Source: an uncultured Sphingomonadaceae bacterium (GTDB lineage Bacteria; Pseudomonadota; Alphaproteobacteria; Sphingomonadales; Sphingomonadaceae). Taken from it: DNA of 64,000 nt. Both the position numbers and the translations under genes were made by a program. This document shows positions 43,576 through 52,115 of this stretch, in pieces. Where the stretch lies: NCBI GenBank assembly GCA_947493955.1, contig CANLSQ010000003.1, positions 124,001-188,000 on the forward strand, in the 5' to 3' direction. Numbering within the stretch: position 1 is the stretch's first letter; each line of letters starts with the position of its first letter. The notes beneath the pieces are model-generated. The model saw only the letters and a program-made list of their open reading frames with translations, was not told where the DNA came from and did no database searches.

Positions 43576-44421
43576 TCATCCCCGTTCCGGGCCTTCGCCC
43601 CCGGGACATTGGGCGAGAAACTCTGCCTTGGCCTGTTCAAACTTTTCCGGGGGCAGCCATTTGAACCTGTCGGGCAGCATCACCGGGCCGCCGGCGACAA
43701 AGCGCTGGACCGCCTCGACCACTTCGTCGGTCATGCCCTGACCCGTGCGCAGGTTGATGTTGCGGCTGCCCAGCCGTCTAAGATTGTCGCCGATTTTCTT
43801 GAGCTTTTCCTCCAGAGTATCCTCAGGCTCTGTCGGGTCCGGCGGCGGCAGGCTGACCCATTTGGGATAGATTGTCCGGCCCGCCACCGTCGTGGGCTCA
43901 TCCACGTCCGGATATTGCGGCCCGGGATGTGCCCCGTCATGAACTTCCTCATCACCCGCCCCATTCACTCCCGCCGGCGCAAAGCGGCCCTGCGCGTCGC
44001 GACCGGCGCCGTTGGTGTCATGCTGATAGAGCAGGCGCAGCAGGTCATTGGCATATTTGGTCCGCTGACCCACGACCTTGCCATGATACCAGACATCCTC
44101 CTCCACGCCCTCGACCGCGCGCTGCCACGTGACTTCGCCAATGGTCGTCTCTGACCGGCGCAGCGCGAGGGCCCAGCGTTCGGCAAAGGCCGGGCTGCGC
44201 TTGCGATGGCGATAGGCGCTGTTCCAGCTGATCCCCGCCATGCGGCTGGCGTCCCGCACGCAGCGCGTCTTGGCCAGCGATTCAATAAAAATATTCTGCC
44301 GCTCCGCCGTCCAGCCATCATGGCGTACCCGATAGGGTTTTTCGCGCGGCGGCGGCGCCTCTTCGCTGGGGACGGGCAGGTTGGCGGGAGGGGACCTGTC
44401 ATCAGACGGATCATTTTCCAT
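43576..44421 (-). CDS. HTH (terminase-small-subunit-like) protein of unknown function
   Basis: A 281-residue protein from ATG 44421. A Pro-rich start is followed by a helix-turn-helix-like region (WTAERQNIFIESLAKTRCVR, DASRMAGISWNSAYRHRKRS, residues 37-76) like that in small terminase subunits and related DNA-binding proteins common in sphingomonads. After a Gly-rich linker comes a charged region (PEDTLEEKLKKIGDNLRRLG). Function is unknown. It converges on fliA with 7 bases between. Its first 18 codons and upstream DNA are duplicated at 45936-46069. Confidence 0.6.
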   Translation of the reverse strand: MENDPSDDRSPPANLPVPSEEAPPPREKPYRVRHDGWTAERQNIFIESLAKTRCVRDASRMAGISWNSAYRHRKRSPAFAERWALALRRSETTIGEVTWQRAVEGVEEDVWYHGKVVGQRTKYANDLLRLLYQHDTNGAGRDAQGRFAPAGVNGAGDEEVHDGAHPGPQYPDVDEPTTVAGRTIYPKWVSLPPPDPTEPEDTLEEKLKKIGDNLRRLGSRNINLRTGQGMTDEVVEAVQRFVAGGPVMLPDRFKWLPPEKFEQAKAEFLAQCPGGEGPERG

Positions 44422-44501
44422 GGGGGAGCGGCCCTTTCGTTCCTGATTTGTTCCTTTGATTCGGGCCGGTGTATCAAAGACAAGGGGTTGTAGGAAAGGG
44501 G
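44368..44501. repeat. 134-bp direct repeat, copy 1
   Basis: This stretch (first 18 codons of the HTH gene plus 80 bases upstream) recurs at 45936-46069 with a constant offset of 1568 bases and about eight mismatches. The unit between the copies holds a membrane protein gene and the SRAP gene. Confidence 0.9.
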
Positions 44502-44545
44502 GTTTTGCGTTTGCCAACGCGCGATCCGTCCGATAGCCAAGCGCC

Positions 44546-45094
44546 ATGTATTATTTCTGGTTTATCGCGCTGTTGCTTGTGGGAATATATTGCATAACCC
44601 GTGCGGTGTTAGATTTTCGGACAAAAAAATATGTATGGGCTGTGTTCGGTCTGGTGTGCGGGGGCCTAATCCTGACTGTGCCGATTAAGATGAATGCGGT
44701 GAAAATCGACTTACCAGTTCCATCCTCAGAATTTGCCGAACAGCCGTCCATGCAGATAGAGATATTTGCTGGTGAGAATTTGATCGGCCATAGTTATTTG
44801 ACCACACTCGCTCCGGGGCTTGGTCTCGCCTCTGGTTCATTTGTTCCAACGGAGGCCTATGACCGAAAGGTGCATGCCAAACTGTTCGAACGCGATCATA
44901 TCGACGATCCAAGCAAAATGCTGGTGATCCAATCCAGTGATTATGGCCGGATCGCATGTGATATTGTTAAGATAGAGGATTATTCTGAAGATTTAGGGGA
45001 AATTGACATCGTTTTGGCCGATATACCAGATCCGGAATTTGAAAGGCTTTTCTCCAAGCATGAACAATACCGGGCATATTATGGTTTGGATTAG
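44546..45094 (+). CDS. Hypothetical membrane-anchored protein
   Basis: A 182-residue protein. The N-terminus has two hydrophobic helices (YYFWFIALLLVGIYCITRAV and YVWAVFGLVCGGLILTVPIK) and then a ~130-residue soluble domain, probably extracytoplasmic, rich in acidic residues (ERDHIDDPSKMLVIQSSDYG). No family was recognised. It is divergent from the HTH gene and lies inside the segment bounded by the 134-bp repeats. Confidence 0.5.
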   Translation: MYYFWFIALLLVGIYCITRAVLDFRTKKYVWAVFGLVCGGLILTVPIKMNAVKIDLPVPSSEFAEQPSMQIEIFAGENLIGHSYLTTLAPGLGLASGSFVPTEAYDRKVHAKLFERDHIDDPSKMLVIQSSDYGRIACDIVKIEDYSEDLGEIDIVLADIPDPEFERLFSKHEQYRAYYGLD

Positions 45095-45121
45095 GATGAT
45101 TGGTTCTAATTAGTAAACTGT

Positions 45122-45170
45122 CACCGTAATTCCACCGTAATTCACCGTAATTCCATGTCACCGTAATTCC
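45122..45170. repeat. Short tandem-like repeats CACCGTAATT
   Basis: Four units of CACCGTAATT start at 45122, 45133, 45143 and 45159. The first two junctions are close-packed and the last is interrupted by CCATGT. They fill the gap between the ends of two convergent genes. The regularity is striking for so short an interval, but no function is apparent. Confidence 0.7.
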
Positions 45171-45181
45171 AAATGAGTTTC

Positions 45182-45856
45182 TCACTCGCATGACAGCGGC
45201 GCTAATAATTCCGGTCCATTATTGCGGACATTGCCCACGGCATTGGAAATCGCCGCCGTGTTGAGCGCTCCAGCATAGGGCGTGAGCAGATCGCGCGCGG
45301 CATCCCATTCGCCGGTCAGCCACAGGTCCAGCTGGTCTGGCTCCAATATCGCGGGCAGCCGGTGGTGGAGCGCGGCAAAATCGGGCGTGGCGGCGGTGGT
45401 GACGACCGTATAGCTTTCGAGGTTCAGCGCATCATTGCGGGTCCATAGCCCGGCGAGCAACATCGGCCGCCTATCGCCCCGCTCAATCTTATGCGCCTGT
45501 TTATCCTTGCCAGATGGACCCAGCCCGCGCTGCCATTCATAAAAGCCGGAGACCAGCACGGCGCAGCGGCGCGATTGCAGCAGCGGCCGAAAGCTCGGTT
45601 TCTCCTCCAGCGTTTCGGACCGCGCGTTGATCATGCTGCCCGCCTTTTTCGCATCCTTGGCCCAATGCGGTACCAGCCCCCAATGAAGCGGCGACAGGCT
45701 GTCGCCCGCTTCGCTTTTGCGAAAGGCCAGCACCTGATGGGTCGGCGCGATATTATAATTGGGCGCCAGGTTGGACGGCTGGTCCGGAATGATATTCAAA
45801 ATCTCACGATATTCCGCCCAAGTGAGTTCCTCACTCGCATATTTGCGCCCACACAT
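45182..45856 (-). CDS. SOS response-associated peptidase (SRAP; YedK/HMCES family)
   Basis: A 224-residue protein from ATG 45856. The catalytic Cys is residue 2, exposed after Met removal (CGRKYASEELTW). Other conserved pieces are LAPNYNIAPTHQVLAFR, HWGLVPHWAKDAKKAGSMIN with ARSETLEEKPSFR, SGFYEWQR and TVVTTAATPDFAALHHRLPA. The family forms a covalent thiazolidine link with abasic sites in single-stranded DNA and protects them. It lies within the repeat-bounded segment. A 20-bp near-identical sequence occurs at its beginning and at its end. Confidence 0.9.
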   Translation of the reverse strand: MCGRKYASEELTWAEYREILNIIPDQPSNLAPNYNIAPTHQVLAFRKSEAGDSLSPLHWGLVPHWAKDAKKAGSMINARSETLEEKPSFRPLLQSRRCAVLVSGFYEWQRGLGPSGKDKQAHKIERGDRRPMLLAGLWTRNDALNLESYTVVTTAATPDFAALHHRLPAILEPDQLDLWLTGEWDAARDLLTPYAGALNTAAISNAVGNVRNNGPELLAPLSCE

Positions 45857-45917
45857 ATTGCCCCCGTTCCCCATCGTGAGCGGCGGTTATGGCAATCTTT
45901 ACAGTGCTGTGCACCTG

Positions 45918-45989
45918 TTAGTTTTTGGGAGCGGCGGGGACGGGCAGGTTGGCGGGAGGTGGCGTGTCATCAGACGGATCATTTTCCAT
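45918..45989 (-). pseudogene. Duplicated N-terminal fragment of the HTH gene
   Basis: Within repeat copy 2 the start codon corresponding to ATG 44421 is preserved at 45989 and reads MENDPSDDTPPPANLPVPAA, then runs into PKN and a TAA at 45918-45920. Only 23 codons remain, so it is a truncated relic showing that the duplication included the beginning of a gene. Confidence 0.75.
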
Positions 45990-46069
45990 GGGGGAGCGGC
46001 CCTTTCGTTCCTGATATGTTTCTTTGGTTCGGGCTGGTGTATCAAAGACAAGGGTTTGTAGGAAAGGGG
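45936..46069. repeat. 134-bp direct repeat, copy 2
   Basis: The partner of 44368-44501, about 94 % identical by eye. It marks the left edge of the AT-richer cassette that starts near 46.1 kb. A small perfect dyad TCATCA-A-TGATGA follows at 46081-46093. Confidence 0.9.
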
Positions 46070-46128
46070 TTAGGAAAAATTCATCAATGATGACTTATTG
46101 TAACAAATAGATATTTCTTTACCTTGCC

Positions 46129-47343
46129 TTGATAGCACGTTTATATCTTGCTCAATTCGTGAAATGCATCTCTGAGGGAGTTTTGGCCATCACCGACGAT
46201 AAAGTCGACAAAGCAGTTGCGCGAAACGCAGAGCCAATGCCTTTGGAGCAGTTGCTACTAGACAGCGAAAACCCGAGATTCGGAGGGCTCGCCGATAATA
46301 AAGCCGCTCAAAGCGTGATCTTAGACCACATTGTTAAAACTTTTGGTGTGAGAGATGTCTTAAGCTCTTTAGCGGTCAACGGATTTTTCCAATCTGAACC
46401 TCTGGTTGGGCGGCTTGATGAAGGATCGGACAAAGTAACTATCGTCGAAGGTAACAGGAGGTTGGCTGCCTGTTTAATCCTAACCGGTGATGCTCGCGCC
46501 ACCAACCAACCCGCATTGACTGAGGAGTTTAAAGAGCTTTGGGATCAGCATAACAACCTTCCAGTAGACCCTGTACCTGTGTTGATATTTGGCCCTGAAC
46601 ATGACCAAAAATCACTATTGTCATATCTTGGGGTACGACACATAGCAGGGTCCCAAACTTGGGATAGCTATGCAAAGGCTGCTTGGGTGTCGAAAGTCGT
46701 GGAAGCCAATGATTTAGACGTGATTGATGTTGCAAAGATGATTGGTGATCAACATCGAACGGTAGCTAGATTGCTTGAAGGGTACTATTTTATTCAACAA
46801 GCTCAGGTGACTGGTAACTTTAGACCTCAAGATAGTGTTCGCTCTGGGCGAGGGAGTGTAACAGATTATCCATTTTCATGGGTCTATACGTTGCTTGGAT
46901 ATGCAACGGCACGCCAGTTTTTGCACTTAGATGATGAGGGGCCGAGAGTTAATCCCGTTGCTGACGAATATTTGGAACGATCGGGAATGTTAACTCGGTT
47001 CATGTTTGGCGATAAATCAAAAGGCCTTAATTCGTTAATAGATGATTCTAGAGAACTGGGGGATTTGGCCTCTGCTCTGGCAAGCAGTGAAAAGGTAGCG
47101 CTCCTGGAACAGGGCAATACCGTCAAAGAAATTGTTAGGTTGACTAGGCCGATCGGTGACCGGTTGCGAATAGGGCTTGCTGAAGTGCGGTCTGTTCAAA
47201 GTGAGATATTACAGGGATTAGCCGAAGAAGTAGTGTCGGAAGAAGTGGCGTCAGAAAATGTGCAAGCTGCTTCGATTAACAGAAGGTCTTCCACAGATAT
47301 CGAGAAGAAAATTAAAGAGATAATTATTCCAGATGGCGACTGA
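46129..47343 (+). CDS. ParB/Srx-domain protein, first gene of a putative R-M/defence cassette
   Basis: A 404-residue reading from TTG 46129. GTG 46159 or TTG 46183 (with GAGGGAG very close upstream) are alternative starts. The ParB N-terminal fold is seen in LLLDSENPRFGG (residues 42-53), the Q-x-E-P-L-V segment (FFQSEPLVGRL) and VTIVEGNRRLAACLIL (103-118), followed by RHIAGSQTWDSYAKAAW. ParB-like domains bind CTP or cleave DNA and ATP-like ligands. No partner ParA is present, so a plasmid-partition role is unlikely. The gene is AT-rich compared with its surroundings and overlaps the next gene by 11 bases. Confidence 0.7.
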   Translation: MIARLYLAQFVKCISEGVLAITDDKVDKAVARNAEPMPLEQLLLDSENPRFGGLADNKAAQSVILDHIVKTFGVRDVLSSLAVNGFFQSEPLVGRLDEGSDKVTIVEGNRRLAACLILTGDARATNQPALTEEFKELWDQHNNLPVDPVPVLIFGPEHDQKSLLSYLGVRHIAGSQTWDSYAKAAWVSKVVEANDLDVIDVAKMIGDQHRTVARLLEGYYFIQQAQVTGNFRPQDSVRSGRGSVTDYPFSWVYTLLGYATARQFLHLDDEGPRVNPVADEYLERSGMLTRFMFGDKSKGLNSLIDDSRELGDLASALASSEKVALLEQGNTVKEIVRLTRPIGDRLRIGLAEVRSVQSEILQGLAEEVVSEEVASENVQAASINRRSSTDIEKKIKEIIIPDGD

Positions 47344-48295
47344 CCCGCACTCGGTTAGGCATGCCGAGCAGAGATCGATAACTAATACGGATCAGGTGGA
47401 AATCGATGCGATCAATAATAAATCTGCCGTGATAACTGCAGGTATATACGATGAGCGGCTCTCTGGGGAAATTGACGATATCGATGCTGGAGATACGAAC
47501 CGGGAAAGTTGGCATATTGAAGATGTAGTTTTGGATGATGAAGCCGGACCTATTCGGGATGAAATTGTTAGGCGAATTGGCATACTTGGCAAGCGCTATC
47601 CATTTGAGATACAAGGCAATAGTCTAGTTCACTTACCCTCAAAAAGTAAATTCTACGAGTACTGCTTAGGGATTTGTCATTCGCCAACGATCACTCGCCT
47701 TCCGCATGCTGAACTCCCAAGGACTTTTGAACGAGTCACGGCACTCATAGTGAAACTTTACTTGGGTAATCATTCCGGATCATTCCATACTGGTGCGCCA
47801 AGAGACCATGAAAATGGAAAAACTTTTATGCAAGCGATGGAAAAGCTGTCCGAGGTTTCATCTGCGAACAGAGAATGGAAGTGGAATCCTGACCCAACTA
47901 GACCCGCAGCACCTTCAACGGTTGGCGACGAAGGGATAGACTTCGTCGTATGGAAGAATTCGCTCGATGACCGCATTGGTCAAATCTTTATCGCCGGGCA
48001 ATGCGCTTGCGGTAATGATTGGAGCGACAAATTCAATGATCTCAATGAAGATAGACTCGAGCCTTGGTTACGAAAGCCGTCGTTGGTTCCGTTTACTAGA
48101 TGTTTCGCGACACCTTTTTTGATGTCAGACGGAAACTTTAATGTTGCACATCGACAAGCTGGCTGGACACTAGACCGGATCAGATTGACGGCGATGGCTG
48201 AGGCAGCGGTTGACGATGATGAATACATACCATGGATTACCCAATTAAATCAGTTGTTTGAAGTCTCTCAGCAACCAATCGTGAAGGCTGCGTAA
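47333..48295 (+). CDS. Probable PD-(D/E)XK-like nuclease of the cassette
   Basis: A 320-residue protein starting inside the ParB-domain gene. Its C-terminal two thirds carry what looks like a restriction-nuclease core: an N-terminal helix with Glu (ELPRTFERVTALIVKLYLG, residues 127-145), then GDEGIDFVVWK (Asp203) and a strand with IFIAGQCACGNDWSDK (218-233), where a Gln-Cys pair takes the place usually held by Glu-x-Lys. This D...QC(A/T)CG..W arrangement is one I associate with uncharacterised nucleases beside C5 methyltransferases. That assignment is inference, not a family match. Confidence 0.5.
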   Translation: MATDPHSVRHAEQRSITNTDQVEIDAINNKSAVITAGIYDERLSGEIDDIDAGDTNRESWHIEDVVLDDEAGPIRDEIVRRIGILGKRYPFEIQGNSLVHLPSKSKFYEYCLGICHSPTITRLPHAELPRTFERVTALIVKLYLGNHSGSFHTGAPRDHENGKTFMQAMEKLSEVSSANREWKWNPDPTRPAAPSTVGDEGIDFVVWKNSLDDRIGQIFIAGQCACGNDWSDKFNDLNEDRLEPWLRKPSLVPFTRCFATPFLMSDGNFNVAHRQAGWTLDRIRLTAMAEAAVDDDEYIPWITQLNQLFEVSQQPIVKAA

Positions 48296-48337
48296 AATTA
48301 GCTGGCCGACGTCAGTTTTTTTTTATATTATAGACCA

Positions 48338-49285
48338 ATGAAAACGGCTGTTTCTCTTTTTTCTGGTTGCGGTGGGAGCGACCAAGGTCTCCACGACGCT
48401 GGGTTCGAAATTCTATTTGCAAATGATGTGCTAAAATATGCTCGAGATGTGTATCGAGCAAATCTGCCAGAAACCGAATATTCTTTGGATGATGTCTCGA
48501 CCATCAAAAGCTTTCCAAAAGCGGATGTTCTTGTCGGCTGTTACCCTTGCCAAGGATTTAGTCAGGGTGGTAAAAGAGTAGCGGACAACAAACTGAATTT
48601 TCTTTATAGAGAATTTGACAGGGCATTACGCCAAATCAAGCCTAAAGCATTTATCGTAGAAAACGTTTCCGGTATGAAACGCGCCGACAATGTACACCTT
48701 CATCAAAATCAGGTAATTAGATTTCGATTGGCGGGTTATCGGGTGAAATCTCAGATGTTAGACGCACGTCAATTTGGCGTTGCACAACATCGACAGCGGC
48801 TCTTTATCGTTGGAATAAGAAGTGATTTGGGAGCGGAATATGAATTTCCTAACCCCACCCACTATTATGATAAGCCGGTTGAAGGTTTGAAATCCTGTCC
48901 AACTATAAAGGACAAGATTGGAGATATGCCCCTTTGGCCCGAAGGTGAATATGATACTCAAGATTTTCATTGGTACTATTTGTCGAGAAACCGTTACCGT
49001 GGTTGGGATGATCAAGCAAAAACCGTCGTAGCGAACAGTCGCCACGCAAACCTTCATCCAGTAAGTCCCCCCCTAGAGCGGATACATACAGACAAATGGG
49101 TGTTTTCTTCAGATGATCCGGCTCGGCGTCTATCATATCGAGAGTGTTCTAGACTGCAGGGGTTCTCAAACGACTTCGTTTTCCCGGATGGCGTTGGAAT
49201 ACAACAAAAGTATAAAGTGGTTGGAAATGCGGTTCCGCCTCCATTGTTTGAACAAGTGGCTAAGGCGTTGCCAGACGTTTTTTAG
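48338..49285 (+). CDS. DNA (cytosine-5-)-methyltransferase
   Basis: A 315-residue m5C methyltransferase with all core motifs in order: I (SLFSGCGGSDQGLHDAGFE), IV with catalytic Cys71 (LVGCYPCQGFSQGG), VI (IVENVSG), VIII (QFGVAQHRQRLFIVG), IX (RRLSYRECSRLQGF) and X (KVVGNAVPPPL). A short target-recognition region lies between motifs VIII and IX (residues 175-250). It transfers a methyl group from S-adenosylmethionine to cytosine C5 in a specific sequence. Its position right after the nuclease-like gene makes it the likely self-protecting partner. AT-rich codon use suggests transfer. Confidence 0.9.
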   Translation: MKTAVSLFSGCGGSDQGLHDAGFEILFANDVLKYARDVYRANLPETEYSLDDVSTIKSFPKADVLVGCYPCQGFSQGGKRVADNKLNFLYREFDRALRQIKPKAFIVENVSGMKRADNVHLHQNQVIRFRLAGYRVKSQMLDARQFGVAQHRQRLFIVGIRSDLGAEYEFPNPTHYYDKPVEGLKSCPTIKDKIGDMPLWPEGEYDTQDFHWYYLSRNRYRGWDDQAKTVVANSRHANLHPVSPPLERIHTDKWVFSSDDPARRLSYRECSRLQGFSNDFVFPDGVGIQQKYKVVGNAVPPPLFEQVAKALPDVF

Positions 49286-49387
49286 TCTCGCTTCCCCTTC
49301 CACAAATCCAACAGTTGGTCTAAAGCGCTCCCGAACATCGATTCATTCGCTGGAATTCCTGCTCCCCTCCGCCTTTGCTAAAGCTTC

Positions 49388-49403
49388 GGCGGACAGGTCC
49401 GCC
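49388..49403. repeat. Palindrome in the acnA leader
   Basis: GGCGGAC-AG-GTCCGCC is a perfect 7-bp inverted repeat. It is preceded by CTCCGCC...AAGCTTCGGCGGAC, similar in design to an element in the rplK leader (12962-12990). These are probably two members of a small REP-like family. Confidence 0.55.
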
Positions 49404-49436
49404 CGGCAATAAATTTTTATACGGAGCTACGCTTTT

Positions 49437-52115
49437 ATGACAACAACAGGACAAGACTCGCTGGGCACACGCTCGACCCTCTCGGTTAACGGCACCAACT
49501 ATGCCTATTATTCGCTCGCCAAGGCGGCGGCGAAGCTGGGGGATATCGAACGGTTGCCCTACACGCTGAAGGTCTTGCTGGAAAATATGCTGCGCTTTGA
49601 AGATGGCGGCCACACGGTGGCGGCTGGTGATGCGCAGGCGGTGGTTGACTGGCAGAAAGAGGCCAAGTCGACGGCGGAAATTCAATATCGCCCGGCCCGC
49701 GTGCTGATGCAGGATTTTACCGGTGTGCCGGCCGTGGTTGACCTCGCGGCGATGCGCGACGGGATTAAATCGCTCGGCGGTGATGCACAGAAGATCAACC
49801 CGCAGGTGCCGGTGCATCTGGTGATTGACCACTCGGTCATGGTTGATGAATTCGGCACGCCGCAGGCTTTCGAAAATAATGTGGCGCTGGAATATCAGCG
49901 CAATATGGAGCGCTATGAATTTCTGAAATGGGGATCGAAGGCGTTTGACAATTTCTCCGTGGTGCCTCCCGGAACCGGAATCTGCCATCAGGTGAATCTG
50001 GAGAATATCGCGAAAGCCGTCTGGTCCTCGAAAGATCAGAATGGCGAGATGGTCGCCTATCCCGACACCTGTGTCGGCACGGACAGCCATACGACGATGA
50101 TCAACGGTCTGGGCGTGCTCGGCTGGGGCGTGGGCGGGATTGAGGCGGAAGCCGCGATGCTGGGTCAGCCGGTATCGATGCTGATCCCCGAAGTGGTGGG
50201 CTTCAAGCTCACTGGCGAGCTGGCCGAGGGTATTACCGCGACGGACCTTGTTCTCACCTGCGTACAGATGCTGCGCGAAGTGGGCGTGGTCGGGCGCTTT
50301 GTTGAATTTTACGGACCGGGCGTGGCGGCACTGTCGCTGGCGGATCGCGCGACGATCGCAAACATGGCACCGGAATATGGCGCGACCTGCGGTTACTTCC
50401 CGATTGATGACAAGACGCTGGATTATCTGCGCCTGACGGGTCGCAGCGAAGCGGATATTGCTCTGTGTGAAGCCTATAGCAAGGAGCAGGGTTTCTGGCG
50501 CCATGATGACGAGGTTGAGGCGATCTATACCAAGACGCTGGAGCTCGACATGACCAGTGTTGTGCCGTCGCTGTCGGGGCCAAAGCTGCCGCAGCAGCGC
50601 GTGTCGATGGCCGATCTCGACGAGAGCTTTAACAAGGATATTGTCGATGTGTTCAGCAGCACCGAGCCCGACAAGCGGGTGCCGGTGGAAGGCGTGGACC
50701 ATGATCTGGGCCATGGCGATGTGACGATTGCGGCGATTACGTCGTGCACCAACACGTCCAACCCGAGCGTGCTGATCGCCGCCGGTCTGGTCGCGCGCAA
50801 GGCGCGGGAGCGGGGCCTGCAGCGGAAACCTTGGGTGAAATCGTCGCTGGCTCCGGGATCGCAGGTGGTGACGGATTATCTCGACAAGGCGGGGCTGAGT
50901 GCGGATCTTGATGCGCTGGGCTTTAACCTGGTGGGCTATGGTTGCACGACCTGTATCGGTAACTCCGGGCCTTTGCCGGCGCCGATTTCCAAGGCGATTA
51001 ACGACAATGATCTGGTCGCGGCGTCCGTGCTTTCGGGCAACCGCAACTTTGAAGGCCGGGTGTCTCAGGATGTGCGGGCCAATTATCTCGCGAGTCCTCC
51101 ATTAGTGGTGGCCTATGCGCTGAAAGGCACGGTGCGTGAGGATATGTACGAAACGCCGATCGGGCAGGGCAGCGATGGCGAAGATGTCTATCTGCGCGAT
51201 ATCTGGCCGACCAATGATGAGGTCAATGCGGCCATGGGCGGCGCGGTGTCTCGGGAGATGTTCGAGAGCCGCTATGCGGACGTGTACAAGGGCGACGCGG
51301 CCTGGCAGGATATCGACGTGACCGGGGGCGACACCTATCAGTGGCGTGCGGGTAGCACTTACGTGGCCAATCCGCCTTACTTTGATGGCATGACCATGAC
51401 GCCGGAGCCTGTCGGTGACATTATCGATGCCAAGACACTGGCATTATTGGGCGATTCGATCACGACCGACCATATTTCGCCGGCCGGTGCGATCAAGGAA
51501 GACTCGCCAGCCGGTGAGTATCTGCGCGACCATCAGGTGGCCAAGCAGGACTTCAACAGCTACGGCTCCCGCCGCGGAAATCACGATGTCATGATGCGCG
51601 GAACCTTCGCCAACATCCGCATCAAGAACGAAATGGCCGACGGCAAGGAAGGCGGTTACACCAAATATAATGGTGAGATCATGCCCATCTACGACGCCGC
51701 CATGCGCCACAAAGCGGACGGCAATGACCTGGTCGTTATTGGCGGGGAACAATATGGTACCGGCTCGTCGCGCGACTGGGCTGCGAAAGGCACGAACCTG
51801 CTGGGCGTGCGCGCTGTGATCGTGGAAAGCTATGAGCGTATTCACCGCAGCAACCTGGTAGGAATGGGCGTATTGCCGCTGCAATTTGCGGAAGGCGTTG
51901 ATCGCAATAGCCTGAACCTTGATGGCAGTGAGAGCTTCACCATCAAGGGTGTCGCAACGCTGGATCCGCGCCAGACGGTTGAGGTTGAAATGACCCGCGC
52001 TGATGGCTCGACGGAAACATTCGAAACGCTCTGTCGGATCGATACCGCCAACGAGATGGAATATTTCCTCAACGGCGGCATCCTGCATTACGTGCTGCGC
52101 AATCTGGCAGGCTAG
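49437..52115 (+). CDS. acnA: Aconitate hydratase A
   Basis: An 892-residue aconitase of the AcnA/IRP type. The three 4Fe-4S cysteines are seen as one in [17 protein letters not shown] and two in [14 protein letters not shown]. Substrate-binding segments include [16 protein letters not shown]-type [20 protein letters not shown] and [20 protein letters not shown], and the C-terminal swivel domain has [13 protein letters not shown]. It interconverts citrate and isocitrate in the TCA cycle. The gene is monocistronic or shared with the small gene that starts 4 bases after its stop. Confidence 0.97.

What the first reader, a model, noticed from the sequence alone, without database searches (positions are those of the whole stretch)
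46129..49285. Three-gene ParB-domain / putative nuclease / m5C methyltransferase cassette
Seen: three co-oriented genes, the first two overlapping by 11 bases, with AT-richer codon use than both flanks. They encode a ParB-fold protein without ParA, a protein with an E133...D203...QCACGNDW pattern resembling a modified PD-(D/E)XK core, and a complete C5 methyltransferase. Known: C5 methyltransferases are normally paired with one type II endonuclease. Inferred: here the restriction part seems split between a ParB-type (CTP- or nuclease-active) protein and a PD-(D/E)XK-like protein. That would be a non-standard restriction-modification or anti-phage system, possibly nucleotide-gated.
Basis: partly seen in the sequence, partly recalled or inferred. 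Interest (0 to 1): 0.78.

Follow-up and report, generated by a model that had tools for sequence, protein, structure and literature searches.

The report
ParB–nuclease–methyltransferase restriction-like gene cassette
Three neighbouring genes form a mobile cassette, found in phages and in unrelated bacteria, that looks like an undescribed DNA-protecting and DNA-cutting defence system in which the cutting part is split between a ParB-like switch protein and a nuclease-like partner.

Summary
Three co-oriented genes (A 46129-47343, B 47333-48295, M 48338-49285) lie in the lowest-GC 3.2 kb of the window, in a chromosomal hotspot whose cargo differs in six relatives. A is a ParB-fold protein: Foldseek's first 19 PDB hits are all ParB, Noc or KorB. 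B has no placing match in Pfam, PADLOC or PDB sequences. Its model and profile point, moderately, to an Mrr/MspJI-type nuclease core: aspartate 203 and glutamine 223 are invariant in 38 of 38 homologues. Lysine is at 233 in 37 of 38; the exception has it at the canonical QxK place. M is a HaeIII-like cytosine methyltransferase, probably GGCC-type.

In 33 of 38 A-B loci a DNA methyltransferase is the next gene, of at least three classes. A and B diverge together (r 0.95), while M is exchanged: two E. coli prophages share M at 98% but B at 23%. The trio lies in P2-like phages such as Wphi; about 4% of complete E. coli genomes carry its methyltransferase. I read it as a restriction-modification-like system with a two-protein restriction unit, a sibling of PD-Lambda-5 but not a member. 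Cleavage, nucleotide use and defence are untested. I found no description in the sources searched.

The parts
46129..47343 (+). Gene A: ParB-fold protein with helix-turn-helix, proposed sensor/specificity subunit (404 aa as annotated; the start may be TTG 46183 or ATG 46237)
   Evidence: pLDDT 85.4; first 19 PDB Foldseek hits all ParB/Noc/KorB, best E 1.0e-4, prob 1.00; hhalign to ParB proteins E 1.2e-6, prob 90.8; PHROG 3694 E 3.9e-77
47333..48295 (+). Gene B: Mrr/MspJI-like putative nuclease, D203 / Q223 / displaced K233, proposed effector
   Evidence: pLDDT 84.4; MspJI E 3.7e-3, prob 0.97, low TM-score; viral 'Restriction endonuclease' models at ranks 1, 3, 4, 5, 8; hhalign to Mrr_cat E 7.6e-4, prob 25; 38 homologues; PHROG 14650 E 1.1e-58
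48338..49285 (+). Gene M: C5 cytosine DNA methyltransferase, M.HaeIII-like, proposed protection at GGCC or a related site
   Evidence: PF00145; M.HaeIII 1dct E 8.2e-53 over nearly the full length; target-recognition residues in 26 of 26 orthologues
48300..48317 (+). Terminator-like hairpin followed by a T run between B and M, with GGCC in the stem; may separate A-B transcription from M
   Evidence: consensus match only: 7 terminator-like sites found in the scanned region, 3.0 +/- 1.6 in shuffles; GGCC is in the B-M gap of 3 of 5 co-directional trios examined
45936..46069 (.). Second copy of the 134-nt hotspot border, just upstream of A
   Evidence: 94% identical to 44368-44501; the original lies in the border gene found in relatives
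44368..44501 (.). Original copy of the 134-nt border repeat, inside the 5' end of the border gene
43576..44547 (-). Left border gene of the hotspot (no Pfam family)
   Evidence: found next to the interval in 6 of 6 same-genus genomes fetched (5 by blastn; L044 by tblastn, 33% over 217 aa, E 1.9e-23)
49437..52115 (+). Right border of the hotspot: aconitase-like gene (named from its sequence, recalled; not scanned)
   Evidence: (matched in 16 of 20 genomes, the own one included)

Best explanation
The trio is a mobile restriction-modification-like anti-invader system. M (shown: a C5 methyltransferase by sequence; inferred: methylates GGCC or a close relative) marks the host's own DNA. A (shown: ParB fold with helix-turn-helix by model and profile; inferred: binds a nucleotide and scans or binds DNA, recognising the unmethylated site) and B (shown by model and conservation: Mrr/MspJI-like core with aspartate, glutamine and a displaced lysine; inferred: metal-dependent DNA cleavage) form one obligate restriction unit. 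When unmodified DNA enters, A loads at the site, possibly with a ParB-like nucleotide switch, and recruits or licenses B to cut it. The A-B unit is portable: in other genomes it pairs with Dam-like or N4/N6-type methyltransferases. Steps shown here are the gene set, folds, conserved core, co-divergence and partner exchange. Cleavage, site, nucleotide and defence are inferred.
For: Recurrence: of 38 A-B loci (35 distinct at <80% B identity), 33 have a DNA methyltransferase gene next to the pair: 26 orthologous to M, 1 other C5, 4 Dam-like, 2 N6/N4. Co-divergence: in 20 non-redundant trios Mantel A-B r 0.948 (0 of 5000 permutations reach it), and B is less conserved than M in 190 of 190 pairs. 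Exchange: L003 and L078 share M at 97.8% but A at 31.7% and B at 23.3%. E. coli: Wphi-type B in 103 of 5426 genomes and M at >=99% in 103; second B type at >=99% in 36 and M at 90-95% in 36; 4 of 4 annotated loci opened hold the trio between P2 portal and replication genes. B core: D203 38/38, Q223 38/38, K233 37/38; the exception, L022, has lysine at Q+2. Fold: MspJI prob 0.97, viral restriction endonucleases, Mrr profile E 7.6e-4 against 0.61 and 0.44 for two controls. A: ParB/Noc/KorB. Vsr, the usual companion of C5 methylation (recalled), is beside or near 4 of the 26 M-type trios (L049, L051, L057, L061). Hotspot setting with other, partly defence-like cargo (defence role recalled) in six relatives.
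Against: No activity is shown. The B fold evidence is moderate: no PDB or viral-model hit at E <= 0.001, TM-scores about 0.2, Mrr profile probability only 25. Without the QxK lysine B may be catalytically dead and act as a DNA-binding or regulatory partner; the lysine-migration argument rests on one exceptional sequence. Five of 38 loci lack a directly adjacent methyltransferase: L048, L060, L062 (contig end) and both pairs of L001. PADLOC does not list B. Two HaeIII contacts to the target position (S219, Q244) are not conserved in M, so GGCC is uncertain. The ParB ENxQR motif is not conserved in A. M's independence is not complete: within the 16-trio window-type clade M distances follow A and B (r 0.546 and 0.513).
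Confidence: 0.66

Rival explanations
1. RM plus abortive infection, as proposed for PD-Lambda-5: A senses unmethylated or phage-altered DNA and B is a lethal, non-specific nuclease that kills the infected cell, rather than a site-specific restriction enzyme.
For: A shares its N-terminal domain with PD-Lambda-5_A (best E 1.8e-12). PD-Lambda-5 was said to appear to be a compacted RM+Abi system (PMC9519451, passages). A-like ParB domains are also fused to an AAA/OLD-like ATPase (PDC-M38A), so the sensor swaps effectors.
Against: B has an Mrr/MspJI-like core rather than a known toxin fold. M is conserved with its target-recognition residues, as expected of site-based self/non-self marking.
Confidence: 0.2
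2. A modification-dependent (type IV-like) pair, A-B, that attacks modified phage DNA, with M present for another reason, for example to protect the carrying phage from host HaeIII-type enzymes.
For: The closest PDB fold to B is MspJI, an enzyme of modified DNA (PMC12707154 passages). GmrSD also pairs a ParB-fold NTPase with a nuclease (PMC4619093 passages).
Against: M would modify the host's own DNA. No reader domain was found in B by Pfam. The linkage of A-B to a methyltransferase (33 of 38) fits protection better.
Confidence: 0.08
3. An epigenetic or maintenance module: a ParB-like regulator plus partner using M-methylated sites for prophage or hotspot gene control, without restriction.
For: ParB fold with helix-turn-helix; many copies are in viral contigs or prophages.
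Against: No ParA recognised next to it; no TIGR00180 match at E <= 1. It does not explain B, the methyltransferase class swaps, or the presence in a chromosomal hotspot with partly defence-like cargo.
Confidence: 0.06

Closest known systems
PD-Lambda-5 (Vassallo et al. 2022, PMC9519451; PADLOC PD-Lambda-5_A/_B)
   Same: ParB-type N-terminal domain next to a DNA methyltransferase; the published system protects against phages and is described as a prophage RM+Abi version.
   Different: PD-Lambda-5_A models are longer (428-613 positions but for one short model) and A matches only about their first 160-170 positions. Its methyltransferase is Dam-like, whereas here it is a HaeIII-like C5 enzyme. 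In the two PD-Lambda-5 loci read here no gene B was found (tblastn with nine B proteins, best E 0.17).
GmrSD / DUF262-HNH restriction systems
   Same: ParB/Srx-fold NTPase partner plus a nuclease in one restriction unit, as one or two proteins (PMC4619093 passages).
   Different: Type IV, acting on modified DNA; DGQQR motif instead of EGNRR; HNH nuclease instead of an Mrr-like core.
Mrr/MspJI-type endonucleases
   Same: Asp...Gln-x-Lys core (MspJI: PD-QxK, PMC12707154 passages); B fold and profile match weakly to moderately.
   Different: B lacks the QxK lysine in 37 of 38 sequences and has one at 233 instead; it comes with A and M; no reader domain was found.
Type II R-M of the HaeIII kind (GGCC)
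   Same: M aligns to M.HaeIII over residues 4-312 of 315, E 8.2e-53.
   Different: No single-protein endonuclease recognised; a two-protein A-B unit takes its place.
ParB-methylase-HEPN operons (HEPN survey 2013, PMC3710099)
   Same: ParB-type gene with a DNA methylase in one operon (passages).
   Different: The effector there is a HEPN protein; here it is a restriction-endonuclease-like protein.

Membership tests
C5 cytosine DNA methyltransferase (M) | PF00145 domain with PCQ and ENV motifs | tested here: met
   (E 3.4e-64); PCQ at 70 and ENV at 108
GGCC (HaeIII) specificity of M | Target-recognition contacts S224, R225, R243 and S219, Q244 (PMC11879396 passages) | tested here: inconclusive
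   S216, R217 and R235 match S224, R225 and R243 (26 of 26 orthologues carry SRNR and RH); S219 and Q244 are replaced by histidine in the window protein
ParB partition protein (TIGR00180) | Family-model match and a ParA partner | tested here: not met
   No TIGR00180 match at E <= 1; no ParA-like ORF recognised by eye among the neighbours
ParB fold with HTH (wider superfamily) | N-terminal ParB/Srx fold with GxRR motif and following HTH | tested here: met
   EGNRR invariant in 21 of 21
ParB-type CTP switch | CTP binding and hydrolysis; GERR and ENxQR motifs (motifs recalled) | tested here: inconclusive
   GxRR kept, ENxQR not; binding not testable here
Mrr/MspJI-type nuclease (B) | REase-like fold with D...QxK core | tested here: inconclusive
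   Fold 0.97 prob to MspJI but E 3.7e-3, profile E 7.6e-4 with prob 25, D and Q 38/38, lysine relocated in 37/38
PD-Lambda-5 | Full-length PD-Lambda-5_A protein | tested here: not met
   Matches stay within residues 31-208 of A; a true member matches full length, E 2.5e-174
PD-Lambda-5 | PD-Lambda-5_B Dam-like methyltransferase | tested here: not met
   No PD-Lambda-5_B among M's listed PADLOC hits (25 of 63 shown); M is PF00145, while PD-Lambda-5_B matches Dam-like enzymes of L026, L027 and L029
Druantia (DruM) | DruM with the other Druantia genes (recalled: helicase-type DruE and others) | tested here: not met
   M is closest to a DruM2 model (E 9.4e-118), but no such gene was recognised by eye among the neighbours
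GmrSD | DUF262 with DGQQR plus HNH (DUF1524) | tested here: not met
   EGNRR motif; GmrSD_N matched 1 of 21 A homologues at E 0.034; no HNH family in A or B
Type II restriction-modification | Cleavage of the site that the methyltransferase protects | not testable with these tools
   Needs biochemistry or phage assays

The most novel reading that the evidence does not exclude
A nucleotide-gated restriction system: a ParB-type clamp (A) loads on DNA at unmethylated GGCC-like sites, switches with CTP or another NTP, slides or spreads, and licenses an Mrr-like nuclease (B) with a relocated catalytic lysine. The A-B unit is a portable restriction cartridge that pairs with different methyltransferase classes, and A-type ParB domains are a general sensor that swaps effectors (Mrr-like B, OLD-like ATPase, PD-Lambda-5 C-terminus).
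Probability: 0.35. Interest if true: 0.82.

Novelty: new variant of a known kind. Interest (0 to 1): 0.62.

Why it matters
If true, the ParB NTP switch, known from chromosome segregation, is also the control element of a restriction system whose nuclease half is a separate, fast-evolving protein. That would place a gene set annotated only as 'ParB N-terminal domain-containing / hypothetical / DNA cytosine methyltransferase' among defence systems; its methyltransferase has matches in 225 of 5426 complete E. coli genomes. A laboratory-accessible copy exists in phage Wphi of E. coli W, so the question is directly testable.

Tried and rejected
Rejected: chance neighbourhood (recurrence, and others); partition function (no TIGR00180 match; no ParA recognised); plain PD-Lambda-5 membership; E133 as catalytic residue (31 of 38). 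Considered: Druantia, because M hits DruM2, but no other Druantia gene was recognised. A HEPN domain in the C-terminus of PD-Lambda-5_A (suggested by PMC3710099 and by eye) was not confirmed by Pfam in 2 of 2 proteins. My first co-divergence count (22 trios: A-B r 0.962, A-M 0.380, B-M 0.425, the last two reached by 1 of 5000 permutations each) held one duplicate pair (L066 and L080, B identical) and close kin; without L066 and L080 A-M and B-M fall to 0.126 and 0.137 (621 and 494 of 5000), while A-B stays at 0.948.

Led nowhere: PDB sequence search with the B profile (best E 0.018, a Pvc16-type/cap protein) and with the A profile (Rep68 and coiled coils at E >= 0.011). Pfam on 23 B and 21 A homologues gave no convincing B family and only weak ParB_N for A. 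Promoter scan: 3 sites, below the shuffle mean of 5.0. GGCC in the B-M gap is not conserved (3 of 5). Other phyla than Pseudomonadota were not surveyed by genome search.

Literature searches for a description of the trio; one search found no paper, and in the other listings I recognised none that describes it (titles and abstract starts only). Of the listed papers I read PMC9519451 (section 7 and passages) and passages of PMC10799925, PMC12824646, PMC12839542, PMC10853773, PMC3710099, PMC11879396, PMC12707154, PMC2771037 and PMC4619093. The library holds only openly licensed papers, so this is not proof of absence.
Full report
Observation. The window holds three co-oriented genes at the stated place: A 46129-47343, B 47333-48295 and M 48338-49285, with an 11-base A/B overlap. 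The cassette is 45.4% GC against 55.0% elsewhere, and the five lowest-GC windows of its length all overlap it. The window is G000:C3:124001-188000 of a 3.4 Mb genome, and B is found once in that genome.

Setting. The cassette lies between a border gene (43576-44547) and an aconitase-like gene (49437-52115). Of 20 genomes of the genus searched with the start of the latter gene, 16 matched, the own one included; I fetched the upstream region of 6 of the 15 others. The border gene is there in all six (5 by blastn; L044 by tblastn, E 1.9e-23), and the cargo between the borders differs in each: a KAP NTPase; a C5 methyltransferase with a GHKL-type ATPase; a protein kinase with a protein that looks like a PP2C phosphatase by eye; an FRG protein; an AAA_21 ATPase; HARE-HTH plus HEAT. 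B was not found in any of the five other same-genus genomes listed. A 134-nt piece of the border gene is repeated (94%) just upstream of A, as if the hotspot had received two loads; SRAP (45182-45874) and a small ORF (44546-45094) form the other. This is a cargo hotspot.

Protein A. No Pfam or NCBIfam match on its own. An AlphaFold2 model from 21 sequences has mean pLDDT 85.4. The first 19 PDB hits are all ParB, Noc or KorB structures (best E 1.0e-4). Profile comparison with nine ParB-type proteins from relatives, found with TIGR00180, gives E 1.2e-6, probability 90.8, over the ParB domain and into the helix-turn-helix. EGNRR, the counterpart of ParB GERR, is invariant in 21 of 21; the ENxQR motif (recalled as the third CTP motif) is not kept. 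Nucleotide binding is therefore plausible, but its identity is open.

Protein B. No match in Pfam, NCBIfam or PADLOC at E <= 1; PHROG families of unknown function match. Model pLDDT 84.4. The best PDB fold is MspJI (E 3.7e-3, probability 0.97, TM-score 0.24/0.18; nothing at E <= 0.001). In the viral library, five of the first eight hits are named restriction endonucleases (best E 1.2e-3). Profile comparison to five Mrr_cat domains gives E 7.6e-4, probability 25, and aligns DxGxD...Q to Mrr's DxGxD...QxK; two control comparisons gave 0.61 and 0.44. Over 38 homologues D203 and Q223 are invariant, and 37 have lysine at 233; the remaining one (L022) has lysine at the canonical Q+2 position; the same holds in the 35 that remain below 80% identity. 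I read this as a displaced catalytic lysine. It rests on one exception and could also mean a different role.

Protein M. PF00145, E 3.4e-64; match to M.HaeIII over residues 4-312, E 8.2e-53. R217, R219 and R235 align to HaeIII R225, R227 and R243 and are kept in 26 of 26 orthologues. PMC11879396 (passages) gives R225 as contact to the first base and needed for its readout, S224 to the second, R243 to the fourth, S219 and Q244 to the third. The last two differ here, so GGCC is likely but not certain.

Abundance. B was found in 4 of 385 genomes of the class and 3 of 298 of the family (profile A1) and in 6 of 398 of the phylum (profile A6), the own genome included each time; one of the six is a 71-residue fragment at a contig end. 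Among 5426 complete E. coli genomes, the Wphi M has matches in 225: 103 at >=99%, 36 at 90-95%, 86 at 60-80%. B of the Wphi type is in 103; B of a second type is in 84, 36 of them at >=99% and 48 at 60-80%. The equal counts (103/103, 36/36) were not checked genome by genome. Four annotated loci opened all hold ParB, hypothetical protein and C5 methyltransferase between the P2 portal and replication genes; in one (L080) the whole cassette is inverted. A further kind of M in the listing (H123, 68% over 75% of the query) was not opened.

Evolution. In 20 non-redundant trios the median pairwise identity is A 40%, B 33%, M 63%; B is less conserved than M in 190 of 190 pairs. A and B distances correlate at 0.948 (0 of 5000 permutations); A-M is 0.126 (621 of 5000) and B-M 0.137 (494 of 5000). 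Within the 16 trios of the window's own A-B clade, M does follow (A-M 0.546, 0 of 5000; B-M 0.513, 1 of 5000). The clearest case of exchange is L003 and L078: M 97.8% identical, A 31.7%, B 23.3%. A and B behave as one unit; M is inherited with it for a time and exchanged between distant units. That two very different A-B units live with nearly the same M suggests that both respect the same methylation. The faster divergence of B fits a restriction component.

Known relatives. PADLOC matches A to PD-Lambda-5_A only in its N-terminal part. PD-Lambda-5 loci read here (L027, L029) have a longer ParB-type protein next to a Dam-like PD-Lambda-5_B, without B (tblastn best E 0.17). [quoted passage not shown] Another candidate family, PDC-M38A, proves to be an A-like ParB domain fused to an AAA/OLD-like ATPase. 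A-type ParB domains therefore look like a sensor that swaps effectors; this cassette is the version with an Mrr-like partner. ParB-methylase-HEPN operons are noted in PMC3710099 (passages).

Mechanism and verdict. Best reading: M protects; A recognises unmodified DNA and licenses B to cut it. Shown: gene set, folds (A well, B moderately), conserved core, co-divergence, partner exchange, mobile setting. Inferred: DNA cleavage, site, nucleotide switch, phage defence. Rivals are an abortive version of the same logic, a modification-dependent nuclease and an epigenetic regulator. I found no description of this trio, which cover open-licence papers only. I class it as a new variant of a known kind.

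Noticed in passing
window 44368-44501 and 45936-46069: A 134-nt, 94% identical direct repeat: a second copy of the hotspot border, which suggests that two cargo loads were stacked by recombination.
   Followed up: partly
window 43576-49437; L041-L046: A chromosomal cargo hotspot between the border gene and the aconitase-like gene, with different cargo in each of six same-genus genomes (KAP NTPase, C5 methyltransferase with GHKL-type ATPase, kinase, FRG, AAA_21, HARE-HTH).
   Followed up: partly
L026 5402-6349: A protein related to the window's border gene (33% over 154 aa, E 3.1e-12) lies beside the A-B-Dam cassette of another genome of the family, so the same kind of border may guide insertion there.
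   Followed up: partly
window 45119-45191 and 45818-45840: Short TCACCGTAATTCCA repeats and a 23-nt direct repeat (91%) at both ends of the SRAP gene; may be a small mobile or REP-type element.
   Followed up: no
L082 3662-5836, L083 3686-5863, L084 3789-5984: PDC-M38A type proteins are an A-like ParB domain joined in one gene to an AAA_15/AAA_21 (OLD-like) ATPase; Pfam was run on the L082 protein only. L083 and L084 show a 290-299 aa partner gene.
   Followed up: partly
[not shown]
   Followed up: no
L048 8440-12975; L060 8045-11965: A-B pairs beside larger islands with Vsr and a different C5 methyltransferase (in L048 also a helicase-like gene and a second ParB-like gene; in L060 a gene that looks like TniQ by eye).
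   Followed up: no
L010 8312-8905 and window 45182-45874: An SRAP gene lies near the trio in both the window and a related viral contig (25.9% identical); possibly coincidence.
   Followed up: no
G000 whole genome: No Mrr_cat (PF04471) match at E <= 0.001 in the host genome, so an Mrr-type attack on M's methylation is not expected from that family.
   Followed up: no
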